From contig NZ_NJGY01000001.1 in assembly GCF_002250505.1 (NCBI RefSeq), forward strand, positions 317,676-381,675: a stretch of DNA of 64,000 nucleotides, given 5' to 3'. Position numbers and translations under genes: made by a program. The notes beneath the pieces are model-generated. The model saw nothing but the letters and a program-made list of their open reading frames with translations, was not told the origin of the DNA and made no database searches. Below, in pieces: positions 36,903-43,142 of this stretch (position 1 is the first letter of the stretch; each line of letters starts with the position of its first letter). This DNA is from Janthinobacterium sp. PC23-8 (GTDB lineage Bacteria > Pseudomonadota > Gammaproteobacteria > Burkholderiales > Burkholderiaceae_D).

Positions 36903-38117
36903 ATGCATCGCCAGAAAATTCTCTTTGTCGCCGAGGCCGTCACCCTGGCCCATGTCGGTCGTCCGCTGACCTTGGCGCAAGGACTGGACGATACCCTGTA
37001 CGAGGTGCATTTTGCGTGCACCGATGGCTATGATTTCTGCTTTCAGGGCACCCCTTTCCAGCGCTGGCGCATCCACAGCATCCCATCGCGGCAATTCCTG
37101 CATGCCCTGGCACAAGGCAAGCCCGTGTATGACGAAGCCACCTTGCAAGCCTATGTCGAAGACGACCTGCGCCTGTTCGACGCGGTGCGGCCCGATCTGG
37201 TGATCGGCGACTTTCGTTTGTCGCTGTCGGTCAGCGCGCGCCTGCGCGCCATCCCCTACATCACTGTCAGCAATGCCTACTGGAGCCCCCATGTGCGCCA
37301 GCACTACACGGTGCCCAGCCTGCCGCTCACGCGCATGCTGCCGATCTGGCTGGCCGATCCCCTGTTCCGCCTGATACGCCCGCTGGCCTTTGCCAGCCAT
37401 GCCGTCCCCATGAACCGCGTGCGCCGCCGCCATGGCCTGCCTTCGCTCGGTGGCGACTTGCGCCGTATCTATACCGATGCCGACCAGACCCTGTATGCCG
37501 ATATCCCGCAACTGTTTCCACCGCAGGCCATGCCGGCCCATCACGGCTACCTGGGCGCCATCGTCTGGGCGCCGCCGATGGACTTGCCGTCCTGGTGGCA
37601 ACTGCCGGAACTGCGCCAGGACCAGGGGCGGCCCCTGATTTACGTCACCCTGGGCAGTTCCGGCCAGTCGCAGTTGCTGCCGCGCGTGCTGCATGCGCTG
37701 TCGACCTTGCCCGTCACCGTGCTGGCCGCCACGGCCGGCACCATTGAACTGGACAGCGTGCCGCCGAACGCCCATGTCACACCCTTCCTGCCTGGCGACG
37801 CGGCCGCACGCCGCGCCAGCCTGGTGATCTGCAATGGCGGCAGCCCCACCAGCCAGCAGGCTTTGGTTGCGGGCGTGCCCGTCATCGGCATCGCCGGCAA
37901 TCTCGACCAGTTCCTCAACATGCACGGCATCGTTGCCGCAGGCGCCGGCCAATTGCTGCGCGCCGACCGATACAACGACGACGTCTTGCGCCAGGCCGTC
38001 ACGCGCCTGCTCGGCGATCGCCCGGCGCAGCAGGCGGCACGGCAACTGGCGGCTGTATTCCAGGACTACTCGCCACATGCACGCCTGCAGGAACGCATGC
38101 AGGCCCTGCTCGCCTGA
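36903..38117 (+). CDS. UGT-like (GT1/MGT) glycosyltransferase
   Basis: A 404-residue GT-B fold transferase. The N-terminal half begins MHRQKILFVAEAVTLAHVGR (Rossmann strand and acceptor site). The C-terminal donor-binding half has IYVTLGSSGQ and CNGGSPTSQQALVAGVPVIG with GNLDQFLNM, the equivalent of the plant UGT signature that contacts the nucleotide sugar. The acceptor is unknown; lipid, pigment or polyketide are possible. GGAG lies 7 bases before the ATG at 36903. It precedes the PEP-CTERM genes by 199 bp. Confidence 0.88.
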   Translation: MHRQKILFVAEAVTLAHVGRPLTLAQGLDDTLYEVHFACTDGYDFCFQGTPFQRWRIHSIPSRQFLHALAQGKPVYDEATLQAYVEDDLRLFDAVRPDLVIGDFRLSLSVSARLRAIPYITVSNAYWSPHVRQHYTVPSLPLTRMLPIWLADPLFRLIRPLAFASHAVPMNRVRRRHGLPSLGGDLRRIYTDADQTLYADIPQLFPPQAMPAHHGYLGAIVWAPPMDLPSWWQLPELRQDQGRPLIYVTLGSSGQSQLLPRVLHALSTLPVTVLAATAGTIELDSVPPNAHVTPFLPGDAAARRASLVICNGGSPTSQQALVAGVPVIGIAGNLDQFLNMHGIVAAGAGQLLRADRYNDDVLRQAVTRLLGDRPAQQAARQLAAVFQDYSPHARLQERMQALLA

Positions 38118-38316: not shown

Positions 38317-39297
38317 ATGAAACTATCTCAACTGAAACTGCTCCCCGCCGCTGCGGCGCTGGCCATGCTGTGCGCGGCCGGCGGCGCGCAGGCAGGCGCT
38401 TATGGCTACTCGTACGACAACATCTTCGGCCTGACCATCAGCAATCCGACCGGTGTCGTCACTGTCGCCAGCTCCACCAATATTTCGCGCAGCACCTCCA
38501 CCCTGAACGGCGTGAGCGTCATCAATGGCGGCTCCGGCCAACTCGACTCGCCGCAATCGGCCGTCGGCGCCGTGACCAAGGGCCAGAACGACTTCTCGCA
38601 GCAAGGCCCGACCGGCACCTACGCGCGTGGCGACGCACAGATCGTCAGCACGCAGTTCCCGCCCTTCCCCGCTGGCGCGACCAGCACCCAGGCCGTCAAC
38701 GTGGCCGAGGCCCACCTCGACACGGCCGGCACCGCCGACGCCTCGGGCCGCAACGGTTCGACCACCGGCTTTTCCGTTGTCTTCGTGGTCGGCTCGCCCA
38801 CGGCCACACTGGCCTTCAACTTCCTGGCCAATCCCTTCATGCAAGTGTTCCTGAACAACGACGTGGCGCTGGGCTCGTCGTCGACGGCCAACCTGGTGGT
38901 GACCTTCAGCATCACCGATGCGACCGGCGCCACCGTGTTCAACTGGGCGCCGGACGGCGCGGTCGGTTCCGGCATCTCGGGCGGTACGGAGTCGGCCGAT
39001 GCGGCCAACCTGAACACCAACCTGTCGACCAACTTCCTGACCCGGGGCAATCTGTTCACCTATGACCCCACCGGTTGCGGCGCACCGGCCGGCACCGGCA
39101 TCGGCACCGCTTGCGGCGGTACTTTCTCGGCCCTGACCAACACCCTGGCGGCAGGCAGCTACACCCTGACCCTGAACGCGGTGGAAAGCGTGGACCTGGT
39201 GAAAGTGACGGCCGTGCCGGAACCGGGCACGCTGGCCTTGCTGGGCCTGGGCCTGGCCGGCCTGGGCTACGCCAGCCGCCGCAAAATCACTGTCTGA
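38317..39297 (+). CDS. PEP-CTERM sorted surface/exported protein 1
   Basis: A 326-residue exported protein with a signal peptide (1-26, cleavage AQA-GAYGYS), a beta-rich, Ser/Thr/Gly/Asn-rich body, and a C-terminal PEP-CTERM signal: VPEPGTLALLGLGLAGLGY then ASRRK. Such tails are processed by an exosortase and the proteins are linked to exopolysaccharide and floc or biofilm matrix. No exosortase lies in this window. GAGG precedes the ATG. The protein is similar to its downstream neighbour over its whole length (SYDNIFGLTISNPTG, SGISGGTESADAA, FTYDPTGCGAPAGTG). Confidence 0.9.
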   Translation: MKLSQLKLLPAAAALAMLCAAGGAQAGAYGYSYDNIFGLTISNPTGVVTVASSTNISRSTSTLNGVSVINGGSGQLDSPQSAVGAVTKGQNDFSQQGPTGTYARGDAQIVSTQFPPFPAGATSTQAVNVAEAHLDTAGTADASGRNGSTTGFSVVFVVGSPTATLAFNFLANPFMQVFLNNDVALGSSSTANLVVTFSITDATGATVFNWAPDGAVGSGISGGTESADAANLNTNLSTNFLTRGNLFTYDPTGCGAPAGTGIGTACGGTFSALTNTLAAGSYTLTLNAVESVDLVKVTAVPEPGTLALLGLGLAGLGYASRRKITV

Positions 39298-39425: not shown

Positions 39426-40418
39426 ATGACACTGTTTTTCCGTACGCCCCTCTCCACCGCCCTGAGCCTGACGGCATTGTTGATGGCAGGCGCCAGCGGT
39501 GGCGCACACGCCTCGGCCTACGCCTACTCGTACAACAGTATTTTCGGCCTGACCATCTCCAACCCCACCGGCAGCATTTCGGTGGCAGGCAATACCGATA
39601 TCTCGCGCTCGACGGCCACCCTCAACGGCGGCAGCATCATCCGTGGCGGCAATGGTTTTGTCGATGCGCCGCAATCGGCACTGGGCGCGGTGAGCAAGGC
39701 GCAAAACAATTTTACCCAGCAAGGGCTGGGCAATGCCTCGTATTCGCGCGGCGACGCGCAAATCATCACCTCGCAGATTCCTCCCTTCCCGCCGGGCGCG
39801 ACCAGCACCCACTCCGTCAACGCCGCCGAAGCCTTTCTGTTCGATACGGGCAGCGCCGATGCCTCGGGACGCAATGGTTCGAACACCGGCCTGTCGGTCA
39901 ACCTGGTGGTCGGCGCGCCGGGCGCCACCATCCTGTTCAACTTCCTGGCCGCCCCCTTCATGCAGGCCTATCTCGATACGCTGGCCGGGCCCGGCTCGGC
40001 GTCGAGCAGCAATATGTCGGTCAACTTTACCATCACCAATGCGCTGGGACAAAACGTCTTCAACTGGTCGCCCGATGGCAAGGTCGGCTCCGGCATTTCA
40101 GGCGGCACCGAACTGGCCGACGCGGCCGACCTCAATATCAGCTATGCGGCCAATACCCTTACGGCCGGCAAGATGCTCACCTACGACCCGCTCGGCTGCG
40201 GCGCGCCCGCAGGCACCGGCAGCGGCACCAGTTGCGGCGGCGCCTATACAGCGCTGAGCAACAACCTGGTGGCCGGCAACTACGCCCTGACCTTAAATAC
40301 GGTCAACAGCGCCGATCTGACCATCGTGCCGCGCGTGGTGCCAGTAAGCGAGCCGGGCACCCTGGCCCTGCTGGTACTGGGCTTGCTGGGCCTGTGCCTG
40401 CGACGCAGCGGGCGCTGA
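39426..40418 (+). CDS. PEP-CTERM-type protein 2 (tandem paralogue with altered SEP motif)
   Basis: A 330-residue exported paralogue of the preceding protein. It has a signal peptide (about 1-29, AHA-SAYAYS) and the shared segments SIFGLTISNPTGSISVAG, FPPGATSTHSVNAAEAF, SGISGGTELADAADLN and YDPLGCGAPAGTGSG. The C-terminal sorting tail reads VSEPGTLALLVLGLLGL then CLRRSGR, so the first Pro of the PEP motif is Ser and the hydrophobic helix and basic end are kept. AAGGA lies before the ATG. Whether the exosortase still accepts it is unknown. Confidence 0.87.
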   Translation: MTLFFRTPLSTALSLTALLMAGASGGAHASAYAYSYNSIFGLTISNPTGSISVAGNTDISRSTATLNGGSIIRGGNGFVDAPQSALGAVSKAQNNFTQQGLGNASYSRGDAQIITSQIPPFPPGATSTHSVNAAEAFLFDTGSADASGRNGSNTGLSVNLVVGAPGATILFNFLAAPFMQAYLDTLAGPGSASSSNMSVNFTITNALGQNVFNWSPDGKVGSGISGGTELADAADLNISYAANTLTAGKMLTYDPLGCGAPAGTGSGTSCGGAYTALSNNLVAGNYALTLNTVNSADLTIVPRVVPVSEPGTLALLVLGLLGLCLRRSGR

Positions 40419-40428
40419 CTTGCCAGGG

Positions 40429-41094
40429 TCACGCCTGCTTCCTGAGCAGGCGCGCCGGAATGCCACCCCATACTTCCCCGGCGCCCACCACGCTGTCCTT
40501 GGTCAGCACGGCGCCCACGGAAATAATCGCGCCATCGCCGATGCGCGCGCCAGCCATGATGACCGCATGGGCGCCGATGGTCACGCGATTGCCGATCATC
40601 ACCGGGCGCAGTTCCAGCCTGTCGCCCTCGATCACATGCGCGAATATCACCGCATCGTGGCCGACAATGCTGTCGCTGCCGATGGTGGTCAACGGTGGAT
40701 CGAGCAGAGCGCCGGCGCTGTAGGTATTGCTGCCCAGCCGGGCACCCAGCGCCAGGTAGACCAGGCGCAGCAGGGGCAAGGGCAGGAAGTGCGTGCGGAT
40801 CAGGGAATTGAACAGCAGCAGATAAAACAAAATATTCAGGTTGGCGGCGAATTCCTCGCGCGAACCGGGCGCGGCGGCGCCTGCACGCAGCGGCAGCACG
40901 CGCAAGCACAGCCTGTATACCGCGAAGGCAAACAGATACACCAGCAGCACGGCCGCACACACCACCGCGACAGCACGAAACTCGCCCGGCGGCAGCAAGC
41001 CCAGCAGCAAGACCGCGCTGCCGACGCCAAGCAGCAGGATCAAGGCCAGCAGGCACAGGAACACCACGATTTCTTGCGTACCGATCTTGCGCAT
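40429..41094 (-). CDS. Membrane-anchored left-handed beta-helix acyltransferase
   Basis: A 221-residue protein. Two hydrophobic helices near the N-terminus (about 9-33 and 38-62) and a third possible segment (NILFYLLLFNSLI) are followed by hexapeptide repeats typical of LbH acyltransferases: TTIGSDSIVGHDAVIFAHV, PVMIGNRVTIGAHAVIMAGA, RIGDGAIISVGAVLT, ending VWGGIPARLLRKQA. It likely acetylates or acylates a membrane-associated substrate. It starts 2 bp after the nitroreductase-fold gene, so it is the third gene of the ThiF operon. Confidence 0.82.
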   Translation of the reverse strand: MRKIGTQEIVVFLCLLALILLLGVGSAVLLLGLLPPGEFRAVAVVCAAVLLVYLFAFAVYRLCLRVLPLRAGAAAPGSREEFAANLNILFYLLLFNSLIRTHFLPLPLLRLVYLALGARLGSNTYSAGALLDPPLTTIGSDSIVGHDAVIFAHVIEGDRLELRPVMIGNRVTIGAHAVIMAGARIGDGAIISVGAVLTKDSVVGAGEVWGGIPARLLRKQA

Positions 41095-41096
41095 GG

Positions 41097-42197
41097 CTAG
41101 TCCTTCGCGCCCGGCGTCACGATCAGTTCCCGCAGTGGCCGGCGCAGCGAACGGGCCTGGGCCGGCGCGCCGGCGCCGATACGGCCCAGGAACACGGCCC
41201 GTTCGGCATGTTGCTCGCCCAGCAAGGCGCGCGTTTGCACGGCCAGCTCCTGCGCCACCTCCTGCAAGCCTTCGGTGCGGGAAAACACGCGGCGCTCGCG
41301 CACATAGCGGGCAAAGATCAACGGCGTCAGTTCCGGCTGCATCTGCAGGCCGAGCTCGGTAGCCGTCAGCCAGAAGCGCTGCATGGCGCGCCCGGCCGCC
41401 ACGTAATCGTCGACATGGCGCGGTGGCGACTGGGCCAGCAGCGCGAAATGCGCGCCACAGTACCAGCCTGGCAGCAAGTCCATCTGCAGCCGTGGCGCCA
41501 GGGTGCCGGCCAGCCAGGTATTGAAGAAATCCACGCGGCGCCAGCTGCGCATGATCCAGCGCATCAATTTGGCCGTCATGGGGTCGACCCCGAGTGCCTG
41601 GTCCGGCATGCGGTCCACGCTGTAGCGCGCATTCCATTCGATCACGGCGCAGTGCACCCGGTGCGCCTCGGGCATGATCAGGCGCAAACGGGCATTGTTG
41701 AACATCAGCCGCGCGCAAGCGAAGCGCGTGCGCTTTCCCTCCAGCCACAGCACGCCGTAGCCTTCCGGCAGGCTGGCCGCCAGCGCCGCCTTTTCGCTCA
41801 CGCGCAGGCTGCGCGTGCTGAGCCTGCGGCGCTGCACCGTGCGCTGCGGCAAAAAGGCCGCCAGCGGATCGGGCGCCAGGCCGGGCGCGTCGATAAAGAC
41901 GGCGTCAAAGGTGGGCAAGTGATCGGGCATGCCTGGGCGGCGCCGCGCGTCCATCGAAAGGCCATGGCGGCTGGCCGCCAGCGCCAGGCTTTCCAGCAGC
42001 GCGCCCAGCGACAACTGGCTGGGATGGCCGTCGAGGTCGTACACGCAGTGACTGCGCGTGTCGAAACCATGCACCACCACATGGCGCGGGCCGCGCACCT
42101 CGAAGCGCCAGGGCTGGGTATTGTCGCCGCTGGGCGCCCAGCGCCCCTGGTCGAGGATCGCTTCCAGCACGGGATCGATCGCCAAGCTGTTTGTCAT
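41097..42197 (-). CDS. Nitroreductase-fold (Acg-like) flavoprotein
   Basis: A 366-residue protein with the flavin-binding N-terminal segment LDQGRWAPSGDNTQPWRFEV, typical of the Acg branch of the nitroreductase fold, which comprises two fused half-domains. LSLGALLESLALAASRHGL, RRLSTRSL and AMQRFWLTATELGLQMQPE support the fold. The usual activity of such proteins is FMN-dependent redox or FMN storage; the substrate is unknown. Its ATG overlaps the stop of the ThiF gene by 1 bp, so they are translationally coupled. Confidence 0.8.
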   Translation of the reverse strand: MTNSLAIDPVLEAILDQGRWAPSGDNTQPWRFEVRGPRHVVVHGFDTRSHCVYDLDGHPSQLSLGALLESLALAASRHGLSMDARRRPGMPDHLPTFDAVFIDAPGLAPDPLAAFLPQRTVQRRRLSTRSLRVSEKAALAASLPEGYGVLWLEGKRTRFACARLMFNNARLRLIMPEAHRVHCAVIEWNARYSVDRMPDQALGVDPMTAKLMRWIMRSWRRVDFFNTWLAGTLAPRLQMDLLPGWYCGAHFALLAQSPPRHVDDYVAAGRAMQRFWLTATELGLQMQPELTPLIFARYVRERRVFSRTEGLQEVAQELAVQTRALLGEQHAERAVFLGRIGAGAPAQARSLRRPLRELIVTPGAKD

Positions 42198-43066
42198 CAG
42201 GCCCCCCTGGCGGCGCGGCGCCGCTTGATGAGGGCCATGGCCAGGCGCTGCAGCGGGTGACGGTTGCCGCCCGGACGCCAGGTATGCACCATTTTGTTAC
42301 GATAGGCATCGAAATGCATGCCATGCGGGGCCGCGATCACCTTGCCGCGCCGCAACAGGATCTTCAGCGCCTCGGTAGCGGCCGCGCCCGCGCACAACTG
42401 GCACCCCATGATGGTCGATGGCCCGCGCCGCTCCTTGAGGTTGATGGCGGACGGGTCGACTAGGTAAGGCCCGTGCAGGCCGGCCGGCGCCAGGCCCACC
42501 AGGAAGCGCAGCGCTTTTTCTTCTTCGGGCAAATCGCCCCAGCCGAAATACTGCTCGAACGTCATTTGCCCGGGCAGGAAACTGAGCACCGCCGTGCCCA
42601 TGCCCAGCGGCGCGGCCGTGATCGCCGGGATCGCCAGCCTGGCGCACATGGCAAAGGTCGATTGGCGTGCGGGAAAGGCAAAGAAATCGAGACCGTCCAC
42701 GTACAGGTCGACGCCGTCAAAAAACTCGGCCAGATTGGCGTCATTGATACCGTCGGGGAACAGCTTGATGTCGAGTTCGGGATTGATGTCGCGCGCCATT
42801 TGCGCCAGCACCTCGACCTTGGGCTGGCCCAAGGTCGACACCATGGCGCCGGCCTGGCGGTTGAAATTGGCAATATCGAAGGTATCGAAATCGGCGATAT
42901 GGAAGGCGCCGACGCCCAGCCGTGCCAGGGTCAGCAAATGCACGCCACCGACGCCGCCCATGCCGGCAATGGCCACGCGCTTGCCACGCAAGCTGTCCTG
43001 TTCGGCCCGCGTGACCCAGCCCAGGTTGCGGGCAAATGCCGCGTGATAAGAAAAACCGTCTGTCAT
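42197..43066 (-). CDS. E1-like (ThiF/MoeB superfamily) adenylyltransferase
   Basis: A 289-residue Rossmann-fold protein that should activate a carboxyl group (often a protein C-terminus) with ATP. The nucleotide motif AIAGMGGVGG is at residues 33-41, ADFDTFDIANFNRQ (with the adenylation Asp, Asn, Arg, Gln) at 58-71, and DLYVDGLDFF at 120-129. Only one CxxC pair (GCQLC, 222 and 225) remains, so a four-Cys zinc site seems absent. The C-terminus is basic. The ATG at 43066 has AAAGG upstream. It is the first gene of a three-gene operon. No ThiS/MoaD-like or YcaO partner is nearby. Confidence 0.85.
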   Translation of the reverse strand: MTDGFSYHAAFARNLGWVTRAEQDSLRGKRVAIAGMGGVGGVHLLTLARLGVGAFHIADFDTFDIANFNRQAGAMVSTLGQPKVEVLAQMARDINPELDIKLFPDGINDANLAEFFDGVDLYVDGLDFFAFPARQSTFAMCARLAIPAITAAPLGMGTAVLSFLPGQMTFEQYFGWGDLPEEEKALRFLVGLAPAGLHGPYLVDPSAINLKERRGPSTIMGCQLCAGAAATEALKILLRRGKVIAAPHGMHFDAYRNKMVHTWRPGGNRHPLQRLAMALIKRRRAARGA

Positions 43067-43084
43067 GCTCACCTTTCCGGATGC

Positions 43085-43102
43085 CTTGCGTCATTACGCA
43101 AG
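43085..43102. repeat. Inverted repeat in the leader of the ThiF operon
   Basis: CTTGCGT-CATT-ACGCAAG is a perfect 7-bp inverted repeat 18 bp before the ATG at 43066 and just inside the predicted transcript start. It could be a repressor operator or a translation-controlling RNA hairpin. There is no T-tract for termination. Confidence 0.6.
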
Positions 43103-43113
43103 AACCAAGAAAG

Positions 43114-43142
43114 TATTGACAGGCATTACGATAAAAAGTTCC
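43114..43142 (-). promoter_or_regulatory. Strong sigma-E-like promoter of the ThiF operon
   Basis: On the minus strand GGAACTT (43136-43142, exact consensus -35) is followed after 16 bp by TCAATA (43114-43119). This agrees with the sigma-E consensus GGAACTT-N15/16-TCnnA and has the same spacing as the element before rpoE. The predicted start is near 43107, giving a leader of about 40 nt that contains the inverted repeat. Confidence 0.65.

What the first reader, a model, noticed from the sequence alone, without database searches (positions are those of the whole stretch)
40429..43142. Three-gene operon: E1/ThiF-like adenylyltransferase, Acg-like nitroreductase-fold flavoprotein, membrane-anchored acyltransferase
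The genes at 43066-42197, 42197-41097 and 41094-40429 are coupled by a 1-bp overlap and a 2-bp gap. E1-like proteins activate carboxyl groups. In TOMM (thiazole/oxazole-modified microcin) clusters an E1-like protein and a nitroreductase-fold dehydrogenase act with a YcaO enzyme, but no YcaO, ThiS/MoaD-like protein or obvious precursor peptide is nearby. An anchored LbH acyltransferase is an unusual third partner. I infer an uncharacterised modification or biosynthetic module; I know of no functional description of this combination, and my knowledge of the literature is limited.
Basis: partly seen in the sequence, partly recalled or inferred. Interest (0 to 1): 0.78.

Follow-up and report, generated by a model that had tools for sequence, protein, structure and literature searches.

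The report
Acyl-oxazolone-type lipid operon with swapped acyltransferase
Two of these three bacterial genes look like enzymes already known to turn fatty-acid-linked amino acids into ring-shaped lipids; the third, an unrelated membrane acyltransferase, sits where the usual partner enzyme is missing, close to a gene for a likely sugar-attaching enzyme.

Summary
The operon is real: E1 (43066-42197), nitroreductase-fold NTR (42197-41097) and membrane-anchored LbH acyltransferase (41094-40429) stand in this order on one strand in 31 of 37 LbH loci from named genomes, Janthinobacterium to Duganella and Rugamonas. The 'uncharacterised module' reading is half right. ThiF-like cyclase plus flavin-dependent oxidase is a published pair (OxzB, TyzB/TyzC, TrzS; NAS-ThiF-NTR in Massilia kyonggiensis) that cyclises and desaturates N-acyl amino acids. 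New here: (1) a linked FeeM-type N-acyl amino acid synthase (NAS) is found in 42 of 44 E1 loci outside the LbH clade and in none of the 61 loci examined inside it. (2) The window genome's one strong NAS lies on another contig; 14 of 36 LbH genomes have none, and 12 of those carry an intact trio. (3) An EryCIII-like glycosyltransferase lies near LbH in 36 of 37 loci, often with PEP-CTERM genes. I read it as a variant N-acyl-dehydroamino-acid/oxazolone pathway in which LbH supplies the N-acyl group (about 0.45) or tailors the product (about 0.35). No product or activity has been shown.

The parts
42197..43066 (-). E1/ThiF-like adenylating cyclase candidate, 289 aa (NCBIfam PRK08223)
   Evidence: GxGGVG 35-40, R70, K83 and D127 line up with MoeB (roles of the MoeB residues recalled) and are at least 95% conserved in 91 E1 rows
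41097..42197 (-). Nitroreductase-fold flavin-dependent oxidase candidate, 366 aa
   Evidence: most of the N-terminal stretch WAPSGDNTQPWRFE (W20-E33) conserved in 83 NTR rows, duplicates of a genome included (that it binds FMN is recalled)
40429..41094 (-). Membrane-anchored left-handed beta-helix (hexapeptide) acyltransferase, 221 aa, two long N-terminal hydrophobic helices
   Evidence: H153 invariant in 38 of 38
39426..40418 (+). EDSAP-1 family PEP-CTERM surface protein, copy 2 (330 aa)
   Evidence: NF041538, 216.5 bits over the cut-off of 100
38317..39297 (+). EDSAP-1 family PEP-CTERM surface protein, copy 1 (326 aa)
   Evidence: NF041538, 250.5 bits over the cut-off of 100
36903..38117 (+). 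EryCIII/MGT-like glycosyltransferase, 404 aa, convergent with LbH
   Evidence: PF06722; near LbH in 36 of 37 LbH loci; 29 of the 30 genomes that have it also have E1

Best explanation
E1 and NTR are the cyclase and the desaturase of an N-acyl-amino-acid pathway of the acyl-oxazolone / N-acyl-dehydrotyrosine kind. E1 adenylates the carboxyl group of an N-acylated (probably aromatic) amino acid and closes the oxazolone ring with ATP; NTR, with FMN and O2, introduces the 2,3-double bond. In this clade the usual linked FeeM-type N-acyl amino acid synthase is absent and a membrane-anchored LbH acyltransferase is coupled instead. I think LbH most likely supplies the N-acyl group, a non-homologous stand-in for NAS (about 0.45), working at the membrane. 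The neighbouring EryCIII-like glycosyltransferase then probably glycosylates the product. Shown here: gene order, conservation, absence of linked NAS, sequence motifs, LbH fold model. Inferred from characterised relatives: the E1 and NTR reactions. Inferred from genomics only: the roles of LbH and the glycosyltransferase. The stated confidence is for the E1/NTR assignment with LbH and GT as partners, not for LbH being the N-acyltransferase.
For: E1 passes PRK08223 and scores on PRK14851/14852; NTR scores on the Rv1355c, PRK14851 and PRK14852 models below cut-off. Rv1355c = TrzS, a ThiF-FDO fusion making tryptazolones; TyzB/TyzC do the same for tyrosine; M. kyonggiensis has NAS-ThiF-NTR. Linked NAS: 42 of 44 E1 loci outside the LbH clade, 0 of 61 stretches inside it (the 64-kb window plus 60 loci of 4.6-18 kb, duplicates and 4 loci without E1 included), by a NAS profile that finds the two most divergent, held-out NAS at 69 and 73 bits. 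Whole genomes: 14 of 36 LbH genomes have no FeeM match above about 28 bits; PF21926 sees those two divergent NAS at 49 and 66 bits. On the E1 tree, absence covers 12 rows and 8 changes. The trio is full length and coupled in the 12 FeeM-less genomes that carry it (13 loci, one place twice). Of 7 ORFs scanned in one such locus (L164) LbH is the only acyltransferase. In 5 NAS-linked loci GT follows NTR on the same strand. The best NCBIfam match of LbH is the Pls/PosA NRPS terminal domain (63.8 bits, far below its cut-off of 423), part of an amide-forming enzyme (recalled).
Confidence: 0.72

Rival explanations
1. LbH is a tailoring O-acyltransferase: it acetylates or acylates the sugar that the glycosyltransferase adds (or the phenol), and the N-acyl amino acid comes from an unlinked enzyme: the exosortase-locus NAS where present, an unrecognised one elsewhere.
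For: Nearest folds are maltose and galactoside O-acetyltransferases (sequence profile). LbH sits near GT in 36 of 37 loci, also in the two Aquabacterium loci without E1/NTR. A strong FeeM NAS is present in the window genome and in 22 of 36 LbH genomes.
Against: 14 of 36 LbH genomes have no FeeM match above 28 bits. LbH is coupled to NTR, not to GT. GT occurs without LbH in 5 NAS-linked loci and in 11 of 14 LbH-less Janthinobacterium loci.
Confidence: 0.35
2. E1/NTR act on another N-acyl amino acid, e.g. an OlsB product (N-acyl-ornithine), in the genomes that lack FeeM.
For: Only a weak PF21926 match (22-28 bits) remains in 13 of the 14 FeeM-less genomes, none in the 14th; the window genome's copy of such a match scores 166 bits on an OlsB model, below its cut-off of 350. 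The other copies were not tested on that model.
Against: A similar weak match also occurs in many genomes that do have FeeM, so it is not specific. Characterised E1/FDO pairs use Tyr, Phe or Trp.
Confidence: 0.1
3. The operon belongs to a TOMM/RiPP or ubiquitin-like conjugation system.
Against: The only YcaO match of the genome lies on contig C5; the window is on C4. E1 is PRK08223, and this type is linked to a FeeM NAS in 42 of 44 loci outside the LbH clade.
Confidence: 0.03

Closest known systems
OxzAB (Pseudoalteromonas rubra) and TrzAS (mycolic-acid bacteria) acyl-oxazolone pathways
   Same: ThiF-like cyclase plus nitroreductase-superfamily flavin-dependent oxidase acting on an N-acyl amino acid (passages)
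   Different: There the two enzymes are fused and an N-acyltransferase gene is adjacent; here they are separate, no NAS is linked, and LbH plus GT are the neighbours
TyzABC (tyrazolone)
   Same: Separate ThiF protein (TyzB) and single-domain FDO (TyzC) encoded side by side
   Different: The N-acyltransferase TyzA, of predicted FeeM-like fold, is encoded next door; 'glycosyl' and 'hexapeptide' do not occur in the paper's text
NAS-ThiF-NTR cluster of Massilia kyonggiensis (kyonggic acids) and Thalassotalea (thalassotalic acids)
   Same: Operon-like ThiF + nitroreductase genes; Massilia belongs to the same bacterial family (recalled)
   Different: Has a linked NAS; 'hexapeptide', 'glycosyl' and 'exosortase' do not occur in the paper's text. 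The authors saw no oxazolone in these producers
Maltose/galactoside O-acetyltransferases (hexapeptide XAT family)
   Different: Membrane-anchored by two long helices and encoded in a lipid-type operon

Membership tests
Acyl-oxazolone / N-acyl-dehydrotyrosine pathway (Oxz, Tyz, Trz, NasY clusters) | ThiF-like adenylating cyclase | tested here: met
   PF00899 142 bits; PRK08223 459 bits over 266; ATP-site residues conserved
Acyl-oxazolone / N-acyl-dehydrotyrosine pathway (Oxz, Tyz, Trz, NasY clusters) | Nitroreductase-superfamily flavin-dependent oxidase fused to or adjacent to the cyclase | tested here: met
   NTR overlaps the E1 gene by 1 base; PF00881 43 bits; Rv1355c model 115.8 bits, below that fusion model's cut-off of 476
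Acyl-oxazolone / N-acyl-dehydrotyrosine pathway (Oxz, Tyz, Trz, NasY clusters) | Adjacent GNAT/FeeM-fold N-acyl amino acid synthase | tested here: not met
   No NAS-profile hit in the 64-kb window or in 60 other loci of the clade; the one strong FeeM of the genome is on another contig
Acyl-oxazolone / N-acyl-dehydrotyrosine pathway (Oxz, Tyz, Trz, NasY clusters) | Product is an acyl-oxazolone or N-acyl-dehydroamino acid | not testable with these tools
   Needs mass spectrometry
NCBIfam PRK08223 (E1) | Score over curated cut-off | tested here: met
   459.3 against 266 bits
Acg family FMN-binding oxidoreductase NF047509 (NTR) | Score over curated cut-off | tested here: not met
   105.7 against 199 bits
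Hexapeptide (LbH) acyltransferases | Left-handed beta-helix with hexapeptide repeats | tested here: met
Pls/PosA NRPS terminal domain TIGR02353 (LbH) | Score over curated cut-off | tested here: not met
   63.8 against 423.1 bits, best NCBIfam match of LbH
TOMM (YcaO) cluster | YcaO cyclodehydratase in the cluster | tested here: not met
   Single YcaO match of the genome on contig C5; the window is on C4

The most novel reading that the evidence does not exclude
LbH is a membrane-bound N-acyl amino acid synthase unrelated to FeeM that displaced it in Oxalobacteraceae, and together with E1, NTR and the glycosyltransferase makes a new class of glycosylated N-acyl-dehydroamino acid / oxazolone lipids tied to PEP-CTERM surface proteins.
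Probability: 0.28. Interest if true: 0.68.

Novelty: new variant of a known kind. Interest (0 to 1): 0.52.

Why it matters
Bacterial acyl-oxazolones were reported only recently and their function is unclear. This locus shows the cyclase/oxidase pair persisting in genomes where no FeeM-type N-acyl amino acid synthase could be recognised, points to a different acyltransferase fold as a candidate for the first step, and adds a glycosyltransferase that predicts glycosylated products. The module occurs in soil and water bacteria such as Janthinobacterium and Duganella, so it can be tested by knockout and mass spectrometry.

Tried and rejected
TOMM/RiPP and ubiquitin-like readings: rejected. Exosortase-locus NAS as obligatory partner: weakened. 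The 13 FeeM-less LbH genomes other than the MAG G269 each show one exosortase match, whereas 18 of the 22 with FeeM show two or three (G263, G266, G271 one; G268 none); I read this as loss of that locus with its NAS, which I did not verify locus by locus. Independent-pairs test of NAS absence against LbH: no contrast, p = 1. The NAS states were entered by hand. The first tblastn pass missed the divergent NAS of L101 and gave only 47 bits for that of L097; both were found by reading neighbours, confirmed with PF21926, and all loci were then re-searched with a profile built without these two. The VIA listing of LbH folds shows no FeeM-type synthase, which is inconclusive. The NTR structure was not predicted. 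Not in the tree: 5 of 104 loci without a full E1 hit (L141, L156-L158, L166) and 8 loci that repeat a place already in. L155 and L099 had no genome-NAS state, L155 and L106 no GT state.

Full report
What is there. The window lies at C4:317676-381675 of a 6.39 Mb genome.

Families. E1 passes NCBIfam PRK08223 (459 bits, cut-off 266). NTR scores on Rv1355c (115.8), Acg (105.7) and PRK14851 (73) models, all below cut-off. LbH scores best on the Pls/PosA NRPS terminal domain (63.8, cut-off 423). In E1 the GxGGVG loop, R70, K83 and D127 align with MoeB and are at least 95% conserved in 91 rows. In TrzS the D217A variant lost cyclase activity (abstract and passages of PMC12856293); I did not align TrzS itself.

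Literature. I read abstracts and passages of PMC10404671 and PMC12856293 and parts 1 and 2 of 5 of PMC12479983. TyzB (ThiF) cyclises and TyzC (nitroreductase superfamily) desaturates N-acyl-Tyr made by TyzA; TrzS is the fused version for Trp; OxzAB of P. rubra was described before them. Massilia kyonggiensis has NAS-ThiF-NTR, though no oxazolone was seen there. Find-in-text for glycosyl, hexapeptide, Janthinobacterium and Duganella gave 0 hits in all three papers. I saw no paper on the LbH or glycosyltransferase combination in the listings (titles and abstract starts) (5 of 5; 20 of 39; 20 of 66; 4 of 4; 5 of 5; 10 of 18; none found); most subscription papers are not in that library. A link between long-chain N-acyl amino acid synthases and the PEP-CTERM/exosortase system was published before (Craig et al. 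2011, recalled, not seen).

Distribution in the bacterial family. Of 245 genomes searched, E1 (E <= 1e-40) is in 63, LbH (E <= 1e-15) in 12, NAS like P0004 (E <= 1e-15) in 78, GT (E <= 1e-40) in 30. 29 of the 30 GT genomes also have E1; the exception is a 30% identical match. 11 of the 12 LbH genomes have E1. All 19 listed genomes of the window's genus, its own included, have E1 and one NAS match; 5 have LbH.

Gene order. I fetched a stretch around each of 67 E1 matches. Outside the LbH clade, 42 of 44 E1 loci have a FeeM-type NAS in the fetched stretch (6-18 kb), often immediately upstream; the exceptions are L089 and L099 (38% identical E1, short contig). A scan of named genomes with the LbH alignment gave 37 loci. 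Complete E1-NTR-LbH stand in this order on one strand in 31; L157's contig begins inside E1; L159 has E1-NTR nearby on the other strand; L158 has NTR but no E1 in the stretch; L141, L156 and L166 have neither. A NAS profile built without L097 and L101 finds those two at 73 and 69 bits, and finds nothing in the window or in 60 loci of the LbH clade (the count includes repeated places and the 4 LbH loci without E1). In the 31, E1-NTR overlap by 1-4 bases in 29 (not L150, L167), and NTR-LbH overlap or lie within 13 bases in 29 (not L138, L152).

Tree. On an E1 tree of 92 rows the LbH loci and the Janthinobacterium loci form one clade of 48 (support 98/93; bootstrap not fully settled). LbH is linked in 34 of these and absent in 14, which are all of the window's genus (L041-L053, L106).

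Whole-genome NAS. PF21926 over the genomes of 36 of the 37 LbH loci (L155 not held): 22 have a strong FeeM (over 150 bits), 14 have none above 28 bits. Of these 14, one is a 2.7 Mb MAG (G269) and one (G254) has LbH and GT with an E1 elsewhere; the other 12 carry the trio. The weak matches that remain may be OlsB: the window genome's own copy scores 166 bits on an OlsB model, under its cut-off of 350. PF21926 gives the two most divergent linked NAS 49 and 66 bits, so it can see such genes. On the tree, absence covers 12 rows with at least 8 changes (6 independent pairs on well-supported branches), all in LbH-bearing rows; the count cannot itself tell loss from gain. In those 12 genomes E1, NTR and LbH are full length (13 loci, L162 and L067 being one place). 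Eight pairs x 3 genes gave dN/dS 0.05-0.28; three pairs are between two FeeM-less genomes. The 13 FeeM-less genomes other than the MAG each show one exosortase match, and 18 of the 22 with FeeM show two or three. Against a simple link: G263, G266 and G271 keep FeeM with one, and G268 with none.

The NAS of the window genome lies at C5:265 kb (P0004, FeeM 181 bits) in an exopolysaccharide/exosortase-type neighbourhood (Wzz-like, ParA-like, BBP2 porin, TPR protein; an exosortase about 10 kb away). It could feed E1/NTR. For this strain I cannot tell whether NAS or LbH makes the substrate.

The wider locus. Convergent with LbH lie two EDSAP-1 PEP-CTERM genes and an EryCIII/MGT-like glycosyltransferase. 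GT is near LbH in 36 of 37 LbH loci (L155's contig ends) and present in 11 of 14 LbH-less loci of the clade; in 5 NAS-linked loci (L062, L064, L065, L071, L079) it follows NTR on the same strand. So GT looks like a partner whether NAS or LbH is the neighbour. In two Aquabacterium MAG loci GT and LbH occur without E1/NTR, and no E1 was found in either genome at E <= 1e-20: this favours a GT-LbH link and is the main evidence against LbH being only a NAS substitute.

Verdict. E1/NTR: N-acyl amino acid cyclase and desaturase, by homology, about 0.72 including LbH and GT as partners. LbH: N-acyl donor step 0.45, tailoring 0.35, other 0.2. It meets two defining features of the known pathway and fails a third (adjacent FeeM-type synthase), so I file it as a new variant, not as a plain member.

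Noticed in passing
L010:9066-9947 (+), genome C5 about 265 kb: The only strong FeeM-type N-acyl amino acid synthase of the window genome sits in an exosortase/exopolysaccharide-type locus; much the same neighbourhood recurs in L125-L129.
   Followed up: partly
L063, L066, L068, L080, L083, L088, L090-L092, L097, L098, L100, L102, L103: E1 with one or two NAS genes but no NTR match in the fetched stretch; in L097 a methyltransferase-like ORF (by eye) follows E1. Possible non-desaturated variants.
   Followed up: no
L089 and L170: E1 of the same type near an ATP-grasp-like protein (L170: weak Pfam matches; L089: by eye); no NTR match in L089. Possibly another use of the cyclase.
   Followed up: no
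L156, L166, L124: LbH relatives beside a glycosyltransferase and, judged by eye, ABC-permease or lipoprotein-sorting-like genes, without E1/NTR; L156 also has a PrsT-type TPR gene.
   Followed up: partly
genome C5:33568-34575: Single YcaO match of the genome, unlinked to the operon.
   Followed up: no
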